From the NCBI RefSeq assembly GCF_014284275.1, contig NZ_JACOFU010000001.1, positions 310,001 to 374,000 of the forward strand: DNA of 64,000 nt, given 5' to 3'. The notes beneath the pieces are model-generated. The model had not been told where the DNA came from and did no database searches. It saw only the letters and a list, made by a program, of their open reading frames with translations. Below, in pieces: positions 7,781 to 15,076 of this stretch. The translations under genes were made by a program, and so were the position numbers. How positions within the stretch are numbered: position 1 is the first letter of the stretch; each line of letters starts with the position of its first letter. The DNA comes from Affinundibacterium amnicola. GTDB taxonomy: Bacteria > Pseudomonadota > Gammaproteobacteria > Burkholderiales > Burkholderiaceae_D.

Positions 7781-9091
7781 TCAAAGCTGCTTGATCAAGA
7801 CCAAGGATTTGCGCTGCCAGTTATACATTTTTTGCCGATCTTTTGGCAGATCATCAACGCTGGCTTGCACGAAGCCACGCTTTAGAAACCAGTGCGCGGT
7901 GCGAGTTGTTAATACAAACAATGAATGAAAGCCAGCACGTCGCGCACGTTTTTCCATATGCTTGAGAATTCTCTCGCCATCGCCTTGGCTCTGCACATCT
8001 GGATTCACTGTCAAGCACGCCATTTCTCCCATTTTGTCGAAAGGGAAAGGATAAAGTGCCGCACAACCGAAGATCACGCCATCATGCTCAATCACCGAGA
8101 AATAGTTGATCTCTCGTTCGATTAATTCACGGCCACGTTTAACCAAAGTGCCATCGGCTTCCAGTGGTTCGATTAACTTAATAATGCCGCCCACATCTTC
8201 AATCGTTGCTTCGCGTAAGCTCTCGAGATTTTCAGTGGAAATCATCGTGCCCACGCCATCATGCGTAAATAGTTCTAATAAAGCTGAACCATCAATTTTG
8301 TAAGGCACAATATGGATACGGGGGACGCCACCGCGCGAGGCTTTTACTGCATGTTCCAGATAGAACGCAGAATCGGATGGTAGGTATTTTTGCTCCAGTT
8401 CAAATTCAGCCTGCCTGTAAGAAAGCTCGCGAATTTCATCACCATCTTGGTCAACCATCATCGGCGTCTCGGAGATAAAAATTAACTTATCTGCGCGCAA
8501 TGCGGTCGCAGCAGATACCGCAACATCTTCCATGGTTAAATTGAATGCTTCACCCGTCGGTGAAAATCCTAGCGGTGACAATAAAACTAAGCTACCAGCA
8601 TCTAAAATACGATCAATGGTATCGTACGCGACTTTACGGGTCGTTCCAGTTAACTGCAGATCGACACCATCTACAATACCGATAGGCTTGGCGGTTACAA
8701 AATTGCCAGAGATAATACGAATGGCAGAATGTGCCATAGGCGTATTTGGCAAACCTTGACTGAAGGCAGCTTCAATATCTAGGCGCAATTCACCCGCAGC
8801 TTCTTTCGAGCACTCGAGCGCAGCCGTATCAGTGATGCGTATGCCATTATGAAAACGGCCTTCGACATTACGCAGCGCTAATTGCTCAGCAACCTGTGGA
8901 CGTGAGCCATGCACGATCACAATTTTGATCCCGAGCGCGTGCAATAGCGATAAATCCTGCGCCAAAACGGGCAGGGCGCCAGCCACCACGAGTTCCCCCG
9001 GAAAGGCGACCACGAAGGTCTTTCCACGGAAGGCATGAATATAGGGCGCGACTGAGCGCAGCCAGTGAACGAATTGAACAGAATTTTCCAT
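7781..9091 (-). CDS. argA: N-acetylglutamate synthase
   Basis: This 436-residue two-domain enzyme has an amino-acid kinase fold (about 1-285, with GKTFVVAFPGELV and KIVIVHGSRPQV) and a C-terminal GNAT acetyltransferase domain (about 290-436, with ACLTVNPDVQSQGDGERIL as acetyl-CoA binding region). It makes N-acetylglutamate from acetyl-CoA and glutamate, the first step of arginine synthesis. The kinase-like domain normally carries the arginine feedback site. It is divergent from hrpA with only 24 bp between start codons. Confidence 0.93.
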   Translation of the reverse strand: MENSVQFVHWLRSVAPYIHAFRGKTFVVAFPGELVVAGALPVLAQDLSLLHALGIKIVIVHGSRPQVAEQLALRNVEGRFHNGIRITDTAALECSKEAAGELRLDIEAAFSQGLPNTPMAHSAIRIISGNFVTAKPIGIVDGVDLQLTGTTRKVAYDTIDRILDAGSLVLLSPLGFSPTGEAFNLTMEDVAVSAATALRADKLIFISETPMMVDQDGDEIRELSYRQAEFELEQKYLPSDSAFYLEHAVKASRGGVPRIHIVPYKIDGSALLELFTHDGVGTMISTENLESLREATIEDVGGIIKLIEPLEADGTLVKRGRELIEREINYFSVIEHDGVIFGCAALYPFPFDKMGEMACLTVNPDVQSQGDGERILKHMEKRARRAGFHSLFVLTTRTAHWFLKRGFVQASVDDLPKDRQKMYNWQRKSLVLIKQL

Positions 9092-9099
9092 GGACGAAT

Positions 9100-9115
9100 T
9101 ATAATCGCAGGTACT
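9100..9115 (+). promoter_or_regulatory. TATAAT directly in front of hrpA
   Basis: A perfect -10 hexamer at 9100-9105 lies 10 bp before the likely hrpA ATG, so a transcript from it would have almost no leader. No convincing -35 was seen, so it may be coincidental. Confidence 0.3.
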
Positions 9116-12100
9116 ATGTCATCTAACAAAACAAATACAAATTCTCCGGAAAAAGTCGCTTCAGACCTACGTCAATTGCGCGATAAGCTGCGTCAGGCAG
9201 GCCAACAACCAACAAAACCCGCTAATTTCCCGAAAAAGGAAAAGCTAGGTGCGCCTGCGAAGCCGCAGAGTCGTACTGAAAATGCTAGTCAGTCGGGAAA
9301 TAGATCTACTTCGGCGGTTAAGACGGCAGTGATTAAGCCGCAAACACAGCCCACGCAGTCGAAAAAGCCAGAAGCCCGACCTGAGCCAGCGTTACCTTTC
9401 CGTAATCCACCGCCCATCATTACTTATCCTGAAGAATTACCGGTCTCAGGCAGACGCGATGAAATCGCCGAAGCACTGCAGAAAAATCAGGTCATCATCG
9501 TCTGCGGTGAAACCGGTTCCGGTAAGACCACGCAATTACCTAAAATTTGCCTGGAACTTGGGCGCGGCCAAAAAGGCTTGATCGGCCACACGCAGCCACG
9601 TCGTATTGCAGCGTCTTCTACAGCCAAGCGAATTGCACAAGAATTGAATTCGCCTTTGGGTGAACACGTCGGCTTTAAAGTGCGCTTTACCGATACCTTG
9701 ACCAAAGGCGCGTCAGTCAAGCTGATGACCGACGGTATTTTGCTGGCAGAAACGCAGACCGATCCGCTTTTACGTCAATACGACACCATCATCATCGACG
9801 AAGCGCATGAGCGTAGTTTGAATATTGATTTCTTGCTCGGCTATCTCAAGCAGATTCTGCCTAAGCGTCGTGACCTCAAAGTCATCATTACCTCCGCGAC
9901 GATTGACGCCCAACGCTTCGCCAATCACTTTGGTGAGAATGGTAAAGCCGCACCGGTGATTGAAGTGTCGGGTCGTTTGTATCCGGTAGAGGTGCGCTAT
10001 CGCCCAATTCAAGCGGATGAAAAAGACAAAGAACGTGATCTGATGGTCGCGATCACGGATGCCGTCGATGAATTATGTCGTTTGGGATCTGGCGATGTGT
10101 TGGTGTTTTTGCCAGGTGAGCGTGAAATTCGCGATGCCGCAGAAGCACTGCGCAAGCATCATCCACCGCATGTAGAAATTTTGCCTTTGTTCGCACGTTT
10201 ATCGGCGCAAGAGCAAGAACGTGTTTTCAAAATTTCGAACGCGCGTCGTATCGTCTTAGCGACCAATGTCGCAGAAACGTCCCTGACCGTGCCCGGCATA
10301 CGCTACGTGGTCGATGCTGGTTTGGCACGCGTCAAGCGTTATAGCTATCGTAATAAGGTCGAGCAATTACAAGTCGAAGCCATCGCCCAATCTGCCGCGA
10401 ATCAGCGCGCCGGTCGTTGCGGTCGTGTCGCGGCTGGTGTGTGTATTCGTCTCTACGATGAACAAGAATTTAAACAACGTACGGCTTTTACCGAACCCGA
10501 AATCCTGCGTTCATCCTTAGCTGCCGTTATTTTGCGGATGAAATCTTTGCGCCTGACCGATGTAGAGAGTTTTCCTTTTATCGAACCACCACCAGGTCGT
10601 GCAATTGCCGATGGCTATCAACTCTTGCAAGAGTTGGGCGCGATGGACGATAGCAATCAATTGACCGCAGTCGGTAAAGAACTTGCAAAGTTACCGTTAG
10701 ATCCCCGCGTCGGCCGTATGATTTTAGCCGCACGTGATAATCAGGCTCTGAGTGAAGTTTTGATTATCGCCGCTGCATTGTCGGTACAAGATCCGCGTGA
10801 TCGACCGATGGATGCGCAGACCGCTGCCGATTTGGCGCACAAAAAATTCGCCGATGAAAAATCCGAATTCACGTCTTATCTCAAAATCTGGAAATGGTTT
10901 GAAGACGCGATCGAACATAAGAAAACCAATCGCCAATTACAAGATAATTGCCGCACTAATTTTTTAAGTCAAATGCGCCTGCGCGAATGGCGTGAAGTGC
11001 ATTCGCAATTGCTGACCATCGTCAAAGAGCAGGGCTGGCGTATCAATGAAGCGCCAGCAACGTATGAGCAATTACACCTCGCCTTATTGACGGGTTTGTT
11101 AGGCAATATCGGATTTAAATCGGAAGAAGACTCACATTACTTAGGCGCACGCGGCATCAAATTTTATATCTGGCCTGGCTCTTATTTGGCGAAGAAAGCT
11201 GGTAAGTGGATTACGGCTGCTGAGTTGGTTGATACCACGCGTTTATATGGACGTTGTCTCGCGCAGATACAGCCAGAGTGGTTAGAAAAAGTCGGCGGAC
11301 ATTTACTTAAAAAATCCTACGGCGAACCCCGTTGGGAAAAACGCACGGGACAAGTCTCAGGCTTTGAGCGCGCGACTTTGTATGGCCTCGTCGTGTACAG
11401 CCAAAGGCGCATACAGTACGGTTTAACGCACCCGAAAGAAGCACGCGAAATTTTCATTCGTGACGCGTTGGTCGAAGGCGACTTCGACACCCGTGCGCCG
11501 TTCCTCGCTTTCAATCAAAAACTGATACGCGAGATTGAAAACATCGAACACAAATCACGTCGCCAAGACGTGCTGGTTGATGATCATTTGATCGCTGCTT
11601 TCTACGACAAACATTTACCAGCCAATGTCTACAACGCCGTCTTATTTGAACAATGGCATAAAGAAGCGACTAAGGGTAATCCTAAATTACTCTACTTAAA
11701 CAAAGACGAGTTAATGCGCCACGAAGCGGCAGGTATTACCACCGATGTGTTTCCTAAGACTATGCAAGTCTCAGGCGTGGGTTTGCAGCTCTCGTATCAC
11801 TTCGAACCAGGTAGCCCGCGCGATGGCGTTACACTCTGGATACCTTTATTCTCACTCAATCAGGTTTCCAGTGATCGTTGCGAATGGTTAGTGCCAGGCA
11901 TGCTTAAAGAAAAAGTGCAGCTATTGATTAAATCGCTACCACAAAAAATCCGCCGTCATTGCGTGCCATTACCTGACTACGCAGCGGGATTTTGTGAACG
12001 CAATGACTTTGGTAAAGGCAATTTCTTAGAAGCTTTGATCGCCGACATACGCGAGCAAAAAGGCTTGCAATGCCTGAGCACTGATTTCAAATTTGAACAG

Positions 12101-13231
12101 CTACCTGCACATCTGACCATGAATTTTAAAATCGTCGATGAACACGGACGCCAATTAGAAATGGGACGCAACCTCGCGACCTTGCGCGCCGAGTTTGGCT
12201 CCCAAGCCCGCGAGAGTTTTCAAAAGATTGCAAGTGCCGACAAATTAGCTCTGCTAGATAGCTCTAAATCTGCAGCAACCGAATCCACAATTAACCGTCA
12301 TTCCCGCGAAAGCGGGAACCCAGCGTCGTTAAGCTCGGCACAATCCGCAACCGTAACAAAATCCGTAACCCCAACAATCCAACAAGAAAACATAAACGCA
12401 TGGACCTTCGACGAACTACCAGAACTACTAGAAGTCCAGCAAGGCAAACAAACCTTAATCGGTTACCCAGCCCTAGTCGATAAACAAAGCCACTGCCACA
12501 TCGAAGTTTTCGACGACCCCGATGAAGCAGCGCGCGTTCATCACTCAGGCTTACGTCGCTTGTTCGCCTTGCAGATGAAAGAACAAGTCAAGTTCTTAGA
12601 AAAGAACATCCCGGGCTTACAGCAAATGGGTATGCAATTTATGTCGCTAGGTTCACAAGAAGAACTACGCGAACAAATTGTCACCACCGCCTTAGATCGC
12701 GCCTTCATGCAATCGCCCTTACCGAAGAATTCTGGCGAATTCAACAAACGCCGCGATGAAGGCAAGGCAAGACTGAATTTATTAGCCAACGAAATCGCCC
12801 GTTTAGCAGGCTTGATTTTGGCCGAATACTACAGCCTGCCGAAGAAGCTACAAGGCCTCAAAGCCCACGCGCAAGCGGCAGCCGACATGCAGCAACAAAT
12901 GCAAAATCTGGTCACAAAACGCTTCATCGCCGAAGTCGATTTCGCTCAGTTGGCGCATTACCCACGCTACCTCAAAGCGATCACAGTACGTATGGACAAA
13001 CTACGTGCCGATCCTGCGCGCGATGCAAAGTTGCTCGCCGAGTGGAATAGTGTAGCGCAGCCTTGGCAGCGTACACCGCGTCGATCGGGTATGGATGCAG
13101 ATCCTAAATTGATAGAGTTTCGTTGGTTGTTAGAGGAGTTACGGGTGTCTTTGTTTGCGCAGGAATTGAAGACGCCCATGCCGGTGTCTGTTAAGCGTTT
13201 GCAGAAGGTTTGGGAGAGTTTGTTGCGGTAG
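9116..13231 (+). CDS. hrpA: ATP-dependent RNA helicase HrpA
   Basis: This is a DEAH-box RNA helicase of 1371 residues. A basic, low-complexity N-terminus (1-100) precedes Walker A GETGSGKTT (about 131), DEAH (about 228), SATI, the C-terminal helicase motif region NQRAGRCGR, the HA2 and OB-fold regions and the long HrpA-specific C-terminal part. HrpA acts on mRNA and ribosomes, including rescue of stalled or collided ribosomes in E. coli. The start MSSNKTNTNS is preferred over the upstream ATG at 9065, which would lie inside argA. Around residues 1060-1071 a dispersed repeat (RHSRESGNP) is inserted in frame in a Ser/Thr-rich linker. Confidence 0.93.
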   Translation: MSSNKTNTNSPEKVASDLRQLRDKLRQAGQQPTKPANFPKKEKLGAPAKPQSRTENASQSGNRSTSAVKTAVIKPQTQPTQSKKPEARPEPALPFRNPPPIITYPEELPVSGRRDEIAEALQKNQVIIVCGETGSGKTTQLPKICLELGRGQKGLIGHTQPRRIAASSTAKRIAQELNSPLGEHVGFKVRFTDTLTKGASVKLMTDGILLAETQTDPLLRQYDTIIIDEAHERSLNIDFLLGYLKQILPKRRDLKVIITSATIDAQRFANHFGENGKAAPVIEVSGRLYPVEVRYRPIQADEKDKERDLMVAITDAVDELCRLGSGDVLVFLPGEREIRDAAEALRKHHPPHVEILPLFARLSAQEQERVFKISNARRIVLATNVAETSLTVPGIRYVVDAGLARVKRYSYRNKVEQLQVEAIAQSAANQRAGRCGRVAAGVCIRLYDEQEFKQRTAFTEPEILRSSLAAVILRMKSLRLTDVESFPFIEPPPGRAIADGYQLLQELGAMDDSNQLTAVGKELAKLPLDPRVGRMILAARDNQALSEVLIIAAALSVQDPRDRPMDAQTAADLAHKKFADEKSEFTSYLKIWKWFEDAIEHKKTNRQLQDNCRTNFLSQMRLREWREVHSQLLTIVKEQGWRINEAPATYEQLHLALLTGLLGNIGFKSEEDSHYLGARGIKFYIWPGSYLAKKAGKWITAAELVDTTRLYGRCLAQIQPEWLEKVGGHLLKKSYGEPRWEKRTGQVSGFERATLYGLVVYSQRRIQYGLTHPKEAREIFIRDALVEGDFDTRAPFLAFNQKLIREIENIEHKSRRQDVLVDDHLIAAFYDKHLPANVYNAVLFEQWHKEATKGNPKLLYLNKDELMRHEAAGITTDVFPKTMQVSGVGLQLSYHFEPGSPRDGVTLWIPLFSLNQVSSDRCEWLVPGMLKEKVQLLIKSLPQKIRRHCVPLPDYAAGFCERNDFGKGNFLEALIADIREQKGLQCLSTDFKFEQLPAHLTMNFKIVDEHGRQLEMGRNLATLRAEFGSQARESFQKIASADKLALLDSSKSAATESTINRHSRESGNPASLSSAQSATVTKSVTPTIQQENINAWTFDELPELLEVQQGKQTLIGYPALVDKQSHCHIEVFDDPDEAARVHHSGLRRLFALQMKEQVKFLEKNIPGLQQMGMQFMSLGSQEELREQIVTTALDRAFMQSPLPKNSGEFNKRRDEGKARLNLLANEIARLAGLILAEYYSLPKKLQGLKAHAQAAADMQQQMQNLVTKRFIAEVDFAQLAHYPRYLKAITVRMDKLRADPARDAKLLAEWNSVAQPWQRTPRRSGMDADPKLIEFRWLLEELRVSLFAQELKTPMPVSVKRLQKVWESLLR
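12295..12326 (+). repeat. REP-like palindromic repeat inside hrpA
   Basis: CGTCATTCCCGCGAAAGCGGGAA-type palindrome, the same family as 14474-14505 and 14519-14553. Here it is read in frame as NRHSRESGNPAS without disrupting hrpA. Confidence 0.85.
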
Positions 13232-13328: not shown

Positions 13329-14057
13329 ATGAGTAATGAACATGAAGCTGTTTCAGCAACCGACCAATTGGCAAGCCTCGAGTCAAAAATTGTTGATACG
13401 AAAAGTGACTTTAGACGGTTGTCTAGGCACAGAAGTTTATTTTATGTAATTAGCCTTGGCATGTTCATTTCACTTATATTCAAATATTTTGGCGGTTATC
13501 AACTCCCTCTTTGGATAGAAGCCCCAATTTGGATTATCGGATTTTTATTTCTTTTGGCTGCGTTAGGTACCGAACCGAATAAAATTTTGTCAGACCTTGA
13601 AAAACTTGAATCATTGAAAAGACTCTATTTCGGGTTTCTCGACGTAAAAGATGAACCTTACTTTGATCGACTAGTAAAAATAAATGTGGAGAATCTTAGT
13701 GAGTACTATTCGTTGGTAAAGCAACATTCGCAGCAAAGTTTTAAGTTGTCTGGATACATTATTTTTCTTGGATTTGTTTTAATATTTGTAGGACTAGGGT
13801 TAGGTTTCTATTTTAGAGATTTGAAAGATATCGCATATATTTCATCAGGTGCTGGTGTAGTTGTGAGTTTTATAGGCGGATCAGTGTTCGTGCTTTATAG
13901 TAAAACTGTCCTTCAACTAAAGCAATATCATGATAGTTTGCTTGATGTTCAAAACGTGTTATTGGCATTTAAATTGGTTGAAGCCACGGATGACGTAAAA
14001 GAAAAATCAGCAATGACTCAAAAAATGATTGAATTTTTATCTTCGCGACGTCTTTAG
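13329..14057 (+). CDS. Four-helix membrane protein, possibly with a TRADD-N-associated-type membrane domain
   Basis: The protein has 242 residues. A short charged N-terminal helix is followed by a TM pair (about 38-80), a cytoplasmic stretch rich in charged residues, then VENLSEYYSLVKQHSQQSFKLSG leading into a second TM pair (about 140-195) and a helical tail. The Tyr-Tyr ... Gln-x2-SF helix entering a two-TM hairpin resembles the TRADD-N-associated two-TM domain described from cyanobacterial conflict systems; this is from memory and uncertain. The gene is much more AT-rich than hrpA and sits next to repeat elements, suggesting recent acquisition. RBS GAGG at 13318-13321. Function unknown. 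Confidence 0.6.
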   Translation: MSNEHEAVSATDQLASLESKIVDTKSDFRRLSRHRSLFYVISLGMFISLIFKYFGGYQLPLWIEAPIWIIGFLFLLAALGTEPNKILSDLEKLESLKRLYFGFLDVKDEPYFDRLVKINVENLSEYYSLVKQHSQQSFKLSGYIIFLGFVLIFVGLGLGFYFRDLKDIAYISSGAGVVVSFIGGSVFVLYSKTVLQLKQYHDSLLDVQNVLLAFKLVEATDDVKEKSAMTQKMIEFLSSRRL

Positions 14058-14064
14058 CGATAGT

Positions 14065-14099
14065 CCCGTAGGGTGGGCAAGCTTTTTTGCCCATGCGGG
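14065..14099. repeat. Palindromic repeat after the membrane-protein gene
   Basis: Outer arms CCCGTA (14065) and TGCGGG (14094) enclose GGGCAA (14075-14080) and TTGCCC (14087-14092). It starts 8 nt after a stop codon. Similar GTAGGGTGGGCAA elements are widely dispersed in proteobacteria. Confidence 0.6.
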
Positions 14100-14169
14100 A
14101 ATAGCTAATTATTCGCAAACAAGTCACCTATTTTTATTCAAATTTTCGCTTGTAAACAATCTCATCGTT

Positions 14170-14415
14170 TACAGATCGGTGGTAGACCGACAGCTACTCA
14201 CTTTCTTTGCTTCGCCAAAGAAAGTAAGCAAAGAAAGGCGACCACGCTGCCACTGGCCTTCGGCTTCCCAATTGTGCGGGACAAAAAATGGGAAAGCCTT
14301 GAAACTCGCTTCGCTCAGACAACAAGGCTTTCTTTATCCATTTTCTGTCCTGCACAATTGGCAGTGTCAGAAGTGGGTGAAGGTCAAAAACAACGGCAAC
14401 GTCAAAAGCAACTGC
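14170..14415 (+). repeat. Structured dispersed element, left copy
   Basis: It starts with a hairpin CTTTCTTTG (14201-14209) / CAAAGAAAG (14216-14224). A long hairpin follows: CCAATTGTGC (14268) with GCACAATTGG (14352-14361), and GAAAGCCTTG (14292-14301) with CAAGGCTTTC (14323-14332). It ends near a GGTCAAAAACAACG block (14382). The same ordered blocks recur in opposite orientation at 14620-14937. No named family was recognised. Confidence 0.8.
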
Positions 14416-14473
14416 AAGATCAAAACAATCAGTATCAACCGCAATGGCGATCAATTAAACTCAAAAAATAGAG

Positions 14474-14553
14474 ACGTCATCCCTGCGCAGGCAGGGATCC
14501 AGTGACGTTAGGCTGTTACGCCGCTGGATTCCCGCCTTCGCGGAAATGACGAT
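14474..14553. repeat. Inverted pair of REP-like repeats
   Basis: One unit (14474-14505, CGTCATCCCTGCGCAGGCAG...) and an inverted unit (14519-14553, CTGGATTCCCGCCTTCGCGG...) face each other across a short spacer. They are the family that translates as VIPAQAGIQ or RHSRESGNP. The pair sits exactly between the two mirrored copies of the larger element. Confidence 0.85.
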
Positions 14554-14619
14554 ACGTGGGACAAGACTAAGCTGAATGCCTCAACAGTATCAATGGACTT
14601 TTATTTTTCCAATCGCCGT

Positions 14620-14937
14620 TGATGGTCGTTGTTTTTGACCTACCACCGTTTGAGACGATGTAATTTGTGCTTCACAGAAAATGGATAAGAAAGTGTTGTT
14701 GTCTGAGGTGTAGCAGGGGATTCGAGGCGCATGCGCCTCGCCTGCGGAACGGTGTTCGCTTGCAAGCGAACATTCCTCAGAACAGTTTCAACACTTTCCC
14801 ATTTTTTGTGATGCACAAATTATGCTGAAGCGTAGCGTAAGCACCCCGCAGGGGCGAGTCTACGGTCGCCTTTCTTTTGCTTACTTTTTCTTTGGCGAAG
14901 CAAAGAAAAGTAAGTAGCCGTCGGGCTACCCCCGACC
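14620..14937 (-). repeat. Structured dispersed element, right (inverted) copy
   Basis: The reverse complement shows the same ordered blocks as 14170-14415. The core stem is GAAAGTGTTG (14689-14698) with CAACACTTTC (14789-14798), flanked by a TTGTGC / GCACAA extension. The loop is longer than in the left copy and carries two further palindromes, CGAGGCGCATGCGCCTCG (14723-14740) and GTTCGCTTGCAAGCGAAC (14754-14771). The outer hairpin around CTTCGCCAAAG is also kept. Confidence 0.8.
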
Positions 14938-15029
14938 AGTAAACTTCAAGAAAGCACATCCGTAATTTCAGTGCGAGAATTCAAAACTACAGAATACAAA
15001 TCCAAACAAATTATTCTTACAGTCATCCA

Positions 15030-15071
15030 AGCCCCTCATCCCCAACCCTTCTCCCGCTCGCGGGAGAAGGG
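15030..15071. repeat. REP-like hairpin downstream of cydB
   Basis: CCCTTCTCCCGC (15046-15057) pairs perfectly with GCGGGAGAAGGG (15060-15071). It sits 5 nt past the cydB stop. No T-run follows on the cydB strand, so it is more likely an mRNA-stabilising REP than an intrinsic terminator. Confidence 0.65.
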
Positions 15072-15076
15072 AGCTT

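What the first reader, a model, noticed from the sequence alone, without database searches (positions are those of the whole stretch)
14170..14937. Mirrored structured element around a REP pair
Seen: two copies of a roughly 250-320 bp non-coding element (14170-14415 and 14620-14937) face each other, with an inverted REP-like pair exactly in the middle (14474-14553). The ordered blocks are shared (hairpin with CTTCGCCAAAG, ACAAAAAATGGGAAAG, TCAGACAACAA, TCCATTTTCTGT, GGTCAAAAACAACG). The whole region is a nested palindrome of about 770 bp. Inference: a non-autonomous mobile or structural DNA element, perhaps landing next to an acquired gene. I do not recognise a named family.
Basis: partly seen in the sequence, partly recalled or inferred. 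Interest (0 to 1): 0.68.

Follow-up and report, generated by a model that had tools for sequence, protein, structure and literature searches.

The report
Paired triple-helix pseudoknot repeat
The mirrored element is one of a dozen paired copies in this genome of a non-coding repeat whose outward-reading strand looks built to fold into a long capped hairpin plus a triple-helix pseudoknot, a design that also turns up in distantly related bacteria and that no catalogue we searched names.

Summary
In detail: window 14173-14938 holds two facing arms. The same A/B pair occurs at 12 places in this genome, with three solo arms, and 29 of 36 same-genus genomes carry arm A. It is not a decayed gene.

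In the genus each arm has a long capped hairpin, an H-type pseudoknot and a terminal hairpin; stems covary. Stem mismatches favour G.T on one strand (172 v 12 in the genus, 73 v 21 across phyla), so the folded strand reads outward in both arms. Where the pseudoknot's pyrimidine linker is asymmetric it matches the stem's purine strand in parallel order: 29 v 0, and 12 v 0 in loci fetched afterwards. That is the signature of a major-groove triple helix.

The cap occurs in eight phylum-level groups, the pseudoknot at least in Pseudomonadota, Bacteroidota and Desulfuromonadales. No Rfam family matches; motif strings gave only papers unrelated by title.

Best reading: an unnamed, non-autonomous, structure-defined interspersed element, probably acting as RNA and moved in trans. 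Mover and function are not shown.

The parts
14173..14382 (-). Arm A; folded (outward-reading) strand is minus
   Evidence: strand assignment
14176..14190 (-). Arm A terminal hairpin (TCGGT/ACCGA)
14201..14224 (-). Arm A pseudoknot stem S2 (CTTTCTTTG / CAAAGAAAG) with 6-nt loop
14212..14216 (-). Arm A pseudoknot stem S1, loop side (TCGCC on plus)
14225..14236 (-). Arm A linker L1, pyrimidine-rich on the folded strand (symmetric tract, uninformative for orientation)
14237..14241 (-). Arm A pseudoknot stem S1, partner (GGCGA on plus)
14268..14361 (-). Arm A long hairpin with one-sided bulge
14302..14321 (-). Arm A cap, AAACTCGCTTCGCTCAGACA on plus = TGTCTGAGCGAAGCGAGTTT on the folded strand
14383..14637 (.). 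Centre: GTCAAAAACAAC-type repeats around a core that other copies carry in either orientation
14474..14553 (.). REP-type inverted pair within the centre (secondary)
14638..14938 (+). Arm B; folded (outward-reading) strand is plus
14661..14823 (+). Arm B long hairpin
14705..14786 (+). Stretch with two hairpins that replaces the usual cap in arm B (limits approximate)
14866..14870 (+). Arm B pseudoknot S1 5' strand TCGCC
   Evidence: (same sequence as L061 arm B)
14871..14884 (+). Arm B linker L1 TTTCTTTTGCTTAC; U3-C-U4 matches A3-G-A4 of S2 in parallel order
14886..14910 (+). Arm B pseudoknot stem S2 and loop (TTTTCTTTG-GCGAAG-CAAAGAAAAG); GGCGA at 14894-14898 pairs with 14866-14870
14920..14936 (+). 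Arm B terminal hairpin (GTCGGG/CCCGAC)

Best explanation
It is a head-to-head pair of units of an unnamed family of non-coding interspersed elements defined by structure more than by sequence. In each unit the strand that reads outward from the centre folds, in this order, into (i) a long bulged hairpin, capped by a mini-hairpin with a GNA triloop and G-A juxtapositions, (ii) an H-type pseudoknot whose pyrimidine linker lies in the major groove of an A/G-rich stem as a U.A-U / C+.G-C triple helix, and (iii) in this genus a terminal hairpin. Supported by comparison: the pairings, the folded strand, the parallel linker match, multi-copy dispersal as A/B pairs. Inferred: that the folded molecule is RNA and not ssDNA, that the fold is the recognition signal for a factor acting in trans, and that this factor copies or moves the unit. 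No mover was found. Once in place the palindromic pair is remodelled by inversion, exchange between copies and deletion.
For: Copies: 12 A/B pairs plus 3 solo arms in the own genome; hairpin subtypes agree within 11 of 12 pairs (7 type-1, 4 type-2; L067 mixed). Distribution: arm A in 29 of 36 same-genus genomes and 4 of 24 others of the order; pseudoknot region in 75 of 300 genomes of the order, 44 of 134 genera. Structure: 98.6% of 1523 cells paired; 101 double-change cells v 26.3 in shuffles and at most 8 in slid controls. Strand: 172 v 12 (100 genus hairpins) and 73 v 21 (128 cross-phylum hairpins, 3 dropped for a low score). Cap: 108 of 136 capped hairpins reach a stem score of 6 v 3.2% with permuted flanks; in loci fetched later, 11 of 34 carry the cap with a longer, different mini-stem, triloop GNA in 9 of 11 distinct caps, v 0 of 102 shuffles. 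Pseudoknot: 43 of 120 loci v 11 of 600 shuffles and 3 of 180 distal stretches. Triple helix: of 110 distinct pseudoknots 29 parallel, 0 antiparallel, 27 symmetric; 16 of the 29 lie outside the genus (loci named). Replicate: 12 parallel, 0 antiparallel, 25 symmetric; the 12 come from 9 loci. Presence/absence at one gene pair: element in own genome and G010; no arm in G013, G017, G024, G028, G029, G030, G033 (four of these lack arm A altogether). Remodelling: element turned round at the matching site in G024 (L065 v L118), both arms of the other subtype in G010 (L064 v L112); centre core in either orientation; own L289 joins the two ends at a GTCGGG repeat where G024 has a full element.
Against: No sigma-70-like promoter in the window element or the L062 copy. 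Single cross-phylum copies show no bias to the strand of the upstream gene (42 same, 37 opposite of 79), though the downstream gene is opposite in 51 of 79. No target-site duplication, sharp end or autonomous partner was seen. No protein recurs in the flanks of the 15 own loci; proteins recurrent beside cross-phylum loci were not assigned to families. Y1 transposases are in 38 of 39 genus genomes whether or not the element is; none of 11 Y1 regions read holds the cap, one (L299) holds a GCTTCGCC match. Reverse transcriptase does not follow the element. A looser longest-run test of the triplex gave 50 parallel, 20 antiparallel, 31 ties; by the labels the 20 are symmetric (10), G-free (8) or lack a linker C tract (2). 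The cap is not universal: exact cap in 14 of 397 Pseudomonadota genomes, and 23 of 34 later loci lack the long-stem cap, of which only L337 and L346 show the basic form. In one search the number of further pair types does not exceed shuffles (26 v 27.8, 471 of 500 at least as high) and stem S1 hardly varies in the genus. Some of the 43 pseudoknot calls look like chance (e.g. L147, L200, L204). Copies are related, so counts are not independent events.
Confidence: 0.6

Rival explanations
1. The folded molecule is single-stranded DNA (or an H-DNA-like intramolecular triplex) exposed at replication and recognised by a DNA enzyme, as for REP/IS200-type elements; RNA is not involved.
For: The cap mini-hairpin GC-GNA-GC is the class known as an exceptionally stable DNA mini-hairpin (recalled; only the phrase was matched in papers). 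GNA with free N and variable mini-stems are seen. Mirror-symmetric purine tracts are also what H-DNA needs. No promoter found. The remodelling seen is at DNA level.
Against: The interlocked S1 pairing and the share of G.T among isolated stem mismatches on one strand (172 of 281 in the genus, 73 of 319 across phyla) fit RNA better. Triplex tracts of 6-9 nt are short for H-DNA (recalled). No cap beside the Y1 genes read.
Confidence: 0.25
2. A structured 3'-end element: transcription stop or mRNA stability element between genes, spread by recombination only.
For: Divergent gene pairs are rare around it: 9 of 79 single cross-phylum copies, 1 of 15 own loci. Terminator-like hits exceed shuffles (5 v 1.3 in 14050-15060, 3 v 0.9 in L062). 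Triple helices can protect RNA ends (recalled).
Against: The folded strand reads outward, against a converging gene's transcript; the flanks show no T-tract after the terminal hairpin in the outward direction (read by eye). A stop signal needs no conserved cap or triplex.
Confidence: 0.1
3. An ordinary REP/BIME-like palindromic repeat moved by a Y1 transposase, with the pseudoknot an accident of palindromic sequence.
For: Paired inverted units, multi-copy; a REP pair inside this copy; Y1 genes in 38 of 39 genus genomes.
Against: Units of about 210-300 nt; no cap in 11 Y1 regions; pseudoknot in 43 of 120 v 11 of 600 shuffles; the 29:0 and 12:0 parallel match has no reason under this view.
Confidence: 0.05

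Closest known systems
REP / BIME / REPIN (RAYT-associated palindromic repeats)
   Same: Multi-copy hairpin units in inverted pairs between genes, non-autonomous (works like)
   Different: Much larger units, pseudoknot with triplex signature, cap found across phyla, no Y1 gene with a cap beside it among 11 regions read. REPIN paper PMC3116915 seen in a search listing only
Other small bacterial interspersed repeats: ERIC, YPAL, RU elements, P. fluorescens R178/R200
   Same: Non-coding, repeated, structured
   Different: Described lineage by lineage. Passages of PMC2267715 and PMC2718517 and a listing of PMC2759123 were seen; their letters were not compared, so kinship with R178 (101 bp) or R200 (320 bp) is open
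Major-groove triple-helix pseudoknots (telomerase RNA, SAM-V and SAM-II riboswitches)
   Same: H-type pseudoknot with a linker matching the purine strand of a stem in parallel order (works like)
   Different: Not a gene leader: intergenic, multi-copy, joined to a long capped hairpin. For SAM-V the start of the abstract was seen (PMC6061858); telomerase and SAM-II are recalled
Large structured bacterial RNAs of unknown role such as HEARO and OLE (recalled)
   Same: Structured, patchy, partly multi-copy
   Different: No Rfam match at gathering score other than tRNA in the window or in 20 loci

Membership tests
REP/REPIN (RAYT-mobilised) | Short palindrome of a few tens of bases | tested here: not met
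   Arms are about 210-300 nt with several structural modules
REP/REPIN (RAYT-mobilised) | A RAYT/Y1 gene flanked by the same repeat | tested here: not met
   11 regions with Y1 matches from 5 genomes: cap in 0; one GCTTCGCC match in L299. Other genomes' Y1 genes were not read
MITE | Terminal inverted repeats matching an autonomous transposon | tested here: inconclusive
   Ends are inverted (GGTCGGG/CCCGACC) but no recurrent flanking protein in 15 own loci; the genome was not scanned for partners
MITE | Target-site duplication | tested here: inconclusive
   None visible in flanks; no empty site with both flanks conserved up to the element
H-type pseudoknot with major-groove triple helix | Interlocked S1/S2 pairing supported by comparison | tested here: met
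   43 of 120 v 11 of 600 and 3 of 180; unrelated S1 pairings such as TCGCC/GGCGA, CTTGA/TCAAG, TGGCC/GGCCA, TGTGT/ACACA
H-type pseudoknot with major-groove triple helix | Linker pyrimidines match stem purines in parallel order | tested here: met
   29:0, 12:0; looser test 50:20:31
H-type pseudoknot with major-groove triple helix | Physical triple helix | not testable with these tools
   needs NMR, crystallography or probing
Any Rfam family | Score at or above gathering threshold | tested here: not met
   Window and 20 loci: only tRNA; lax searches gave sub-threshold hits only
Decayed protein gene | Protein homology in a frame through the arms | tested here: not met
   No Pfam match at or above cut-off for two frames through arm A; frames through arm B were not scanned
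Retroelement moved by a reverse transcriptase | RT presence follows element presence | tested here: not met
   G017, G018, G021, G022, G032 carry the element without an RVT_1 match; G003, G025, G028, G030, G033 the reverse

The most novel reading that the evidence does not exclude
A cross-phylum class of mobile non-coding RNA: each unit encodes an outward-read RNA with a GNA-capped long hairpin and a telomerase-like triple-helix pseudoknot on its 3' side, and this fold, with freely varying stem letters, is the passport by which an unknown and widely shared machinery copies the unit into new intergenic sites.
Probability: 0.4. Interest if true: 0.95.

Novelty: categorically new. Interest (0 to 1): 0.82.

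Why it matters
If the structure is confirmed, a repeat whose pseudoknot region is in a quarter of the sampled genomes of this order (75 of 300), with the same plan in other phyla, carries one of the rare natural triple-helix pseudoknots and has no Rfam family. It would give a new RNA or ssDNA class to look for in expression data, a traceable source of rearrangements in these genomes (inversion, exchange and deletion at shared sites), and a test case for mobile elements recognised by fold instead of sequence.

Tried and rejected
Protein-coding remnant: no Pfam match at cut-off. Rfam: none. Plasmid or phage spread: 5 of 72,556 plasmid records and 0 of 50,697 phage records match arm A; 6 viral contigs hold the cap motif. 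Y1/RAYT: presence uninformative, no cap beside the genes read. RT: no correlation. Common flanking gene: none in the own loci; the strongest sharing among cross-phylum loci was between loci of related Burkholderiales, and one case near the motif (L137 and others) was a frame running over the repeat. The idea that the plus strand of arm A is the folded one was dropped after the wobble and parallel-match tests. Clean empty sites with a target duplication were sought twice and not obtained. Promoter: none. Literature: motif strings occur in three and one papers that are unrelated by title and were not opened; listings of topical searches name no such family. bioRxiv and most subscription papers are not in the library.

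Full report
What is there. The window (own genome G000, contig C1 from 310,001) holds two inverted non-coding arms, A at 14173-14382 and B at 14638-14938, with a REP-type inverted pair in the spacer. Searching the own genome with each arm gave the same A/B pair at 12 places, the window included, plus two solo A-type arms (L072, L073) and one solo B-like arm (L074). To the window's arm A, most other A arms are 77-92% and B arms 67-77% identical over the matched part, so A and B are distinct partners. Two hairpin subtypes exist and agree between the partners in 11 of 12 pairs.

Not a gene. Two frames through arm A have no Pfam match at or above cut-off; frames through arm B were not scanned. The neighbouring 242-aa protein (13329-14057) has a CyanoTRADDas_TM match (E 1.8e-9) and is not part of the element.

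Relatives. With arm A as query, 29 of 36 same-genus genomes (own included) and 4 of 24 other genomes of the order match; the seven without are G003, G005, G013, G025, G028, G030 and G033. With the 81-base pseudoknot region, 75 of 300 genomes of the order match, in 44 of 134 genera. Plasmids and phages hold little.

The cap. The loci come from Pseudomonadota, Bacteroidota, Bacillota, Fusobacteriota, desulfobacterial groups, Nitrospirales, Gastranaerophilales and Magasanikbacteria, among others. The stems under the cap differ from locus to locus: 108 of 136 (six viral-contig hits were in the pool) reach a stem score of 6 against 3.2% with permuted flanks. In an even draw of 397 Pseudomonadota genomes the exact cap is in 14 and the reversed control in none; it is patchy and can be multi-copy (22 in the own genome, 29 in G285). 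The cap also has longer forms: 26 of 100 genus hairpins carry one more mini-stem pair, and in 34 loci fetched through the pseudoknot, 11 carry caps with 2-5 extra pairs of differing sequence, triloop GNA in 9 of 11 distinct caps, against 0 of 102 shuffles. The other 23 lack such a cap; L337 and L346 among them have the basic one.

The folded strand. Isolated stem mismatches are G.T on the strand reading TGTYTGAGCGNAGCGAGTTT in 172 cases and on the other strand in 12 (100 genus hairpins, related copies); across phyla 73 and 21 (128 hairpins, 3 dropped by a score limit); transversion-type 97 and 225. By RNA energies that strand is also the more stable in 124 of 136 capped hairpins. Hence the folded strand is minus for arm A and plus for arm B: both read outward. 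That GC-GNA-GC mini-hairpins are exceptionally stable in DNA is recalled; only matched the phrase.

The pseudoknot. A hairpin loop on the 5' side of the cap (plus strand of arm A) pairs with a segment beyond the hairpin. A detector blind to orientation finds this in 43 of 120 loci, 11 of 600 dinucleotide shuffles and 3 of 180 stretches 1.5 kb away. Some of the 43 look like chance; clear cases include Bacteroidota (e.g. L127, L134, L165, L172), Burkholderiales, a Desulfuromonadales genome (L159) and a Gastranaerophilales genome (L126). S1 takes unrelated forms (TCGCC/GGCGA, CTTGA/TCAAG, TGGCC/GGCCA, TGTGT/ACACA). In an alignment of 30 A arms of the genus 98.6% of cells pair, 14 pairs change on both sides, 101 cells do so against 26.3 in shuffles, and slid structures reach at most 8; the number of further pair types does not exceed shuffles (26 v 27.8), and S1 hardly varies there, so its support comes from other lineages.

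The triple helix. On the folded strand the linker between S1 and S2 is pyrimidine-rich and the 3' strand of S2 purine-rich. Where the purine tract is A(m)GA(n) with m different from n, a Watson-Crick competitor or a copy of the other strand would read U(n)CU(m); a Hoogsteen third strand reads U(m)CU(n). Of 110 distinct pseudoknots, 29 were informative and all parallel, 27 were symmetric, and 54 lacked one of the two tracts. Sixteen of the 29 lie outside the genus, two of them in Bacteroides (L232, L236) and one in a deltaproteobacterium (L157). Patterns include 3/4, 2/4, 4/3, 2/5, 4/2 and 3/5. The test was repeated on 34 loci fetched afterwards with a symmetric query or from plasmids; one of them, L331, overlaps the earlier L105. 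Result: 12 parallel, 0 antiparallel, 25 symmetric, with 29 of 34 loci giving a scored case; the 12 come from 9 loci (an earlier version that counted two registers gave 23, 0 and 38). A looser longest-run test on the first set gave 50 parallel, 20 antiparallel and 31 ties; the 20 are symmetric, G-free or C-less tracts by the labels, where orientation cannot be read. The window's arm B is an informative case (U3CU4 against A3GA4).

Mobility and remodelling. At one convergent gene pair the own genome and G010 carry the element, while no arm was found in G013, G017, G024, G028, G029, G030 or G033; in G024 an unrelated 1.2-kb stretch lies there. In G010 both arms at that site are of the other subtype, and at the L065 site G024 has the element turned round; an independent insertion is not excluded. 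The centre core lies one way in seven and the other way in four of the eleven own copies without REP (read by eye; a regular expression left 20 of 42 genus rows unassigned). Flanks of own L069 lie beside two different elements in G002, as expected if copies recombine. At own L289 the ends are joined at a GTCGGG repeat with the interior gone, while G024 has a full element; only one flank is orthologous. New insertion is inferred from patchy presence at many sites; no target duplication or sharp end was seen.

What moves it. Y1 genes are in 38 of 39 genus genomes and none of 11 regions read holds the cap. RVT_1 does not follow the element. No flanking protein recurs in the 15 own loci. The mover is unknown.

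RNA or DNA. Wobble asymmetry, interlocked stems and the triplex speak for RNA; the GNA mini-hairpin and the lack of a promoter leave ssDNA open. Of 79 single cross-phylum copies the upstream gene is on the folded strand in 42 and opposite in 37; the downstream gene is opposite in 51; 9 lie between divergent genes.

Known or new. No Rfam family other than tRNA reaches threshold in the window or in 20 loci. Motif strings of cap and pseudoknot occur in four open-access papers that are unrelated by title. P. fluorescens R178 and R200 (PMC2718517, passages) could be cousins; their letters were not seen. Interspersed palindromic repeats are a known kind; a repeat with a capped hairpin and a triple-helix pseudoknot shared across phyla is not known to me, and I mark it categorically new with that limit.

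Noticed in passing
window 12297-12330: A REP-like sequence lies inside the long helicase-like frame 9065-13231 and is read through in frame (HSRESGNPASL in the translation).
   Followed up: no
window 14063-14103: Another hairpin repeat (CCCGTAGGGTGGGC...GCCCATGCGGG) just left of arm A; similar hairpins lie near elements in G024 (L294, L295).
   Followed up: no
window 15029-15074: A different short repeat (CTCATCCCCAACCCTTCTCCCGC/GCGGGAGAAGGG) right of arm B; a related sequence flanks some G024 elements.
   Followed up: no
window 13329-14057: Protein with a CyanoTRADDas_TM match, without a match in the stretch of G032 fetched beside the orthologous element.
   Followed up: partly
G016:C1:3447845-3449322 (L260): Four arms in a row, one plus and three minus, so arrays exist as well as pairs.
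   Followed up: no
L132, L200, L206 (Luteimonas), L242 (Lysobacteraceae): Pairs in the opposite arrangement, with folded strands facing inward, unlike the pairs of this genus.
   Followed up: partly
L128: Two capped long hairpins without pseudoknot between consecutive same-strand genes in a gammaproteobacterial genome.
   Followed up: no
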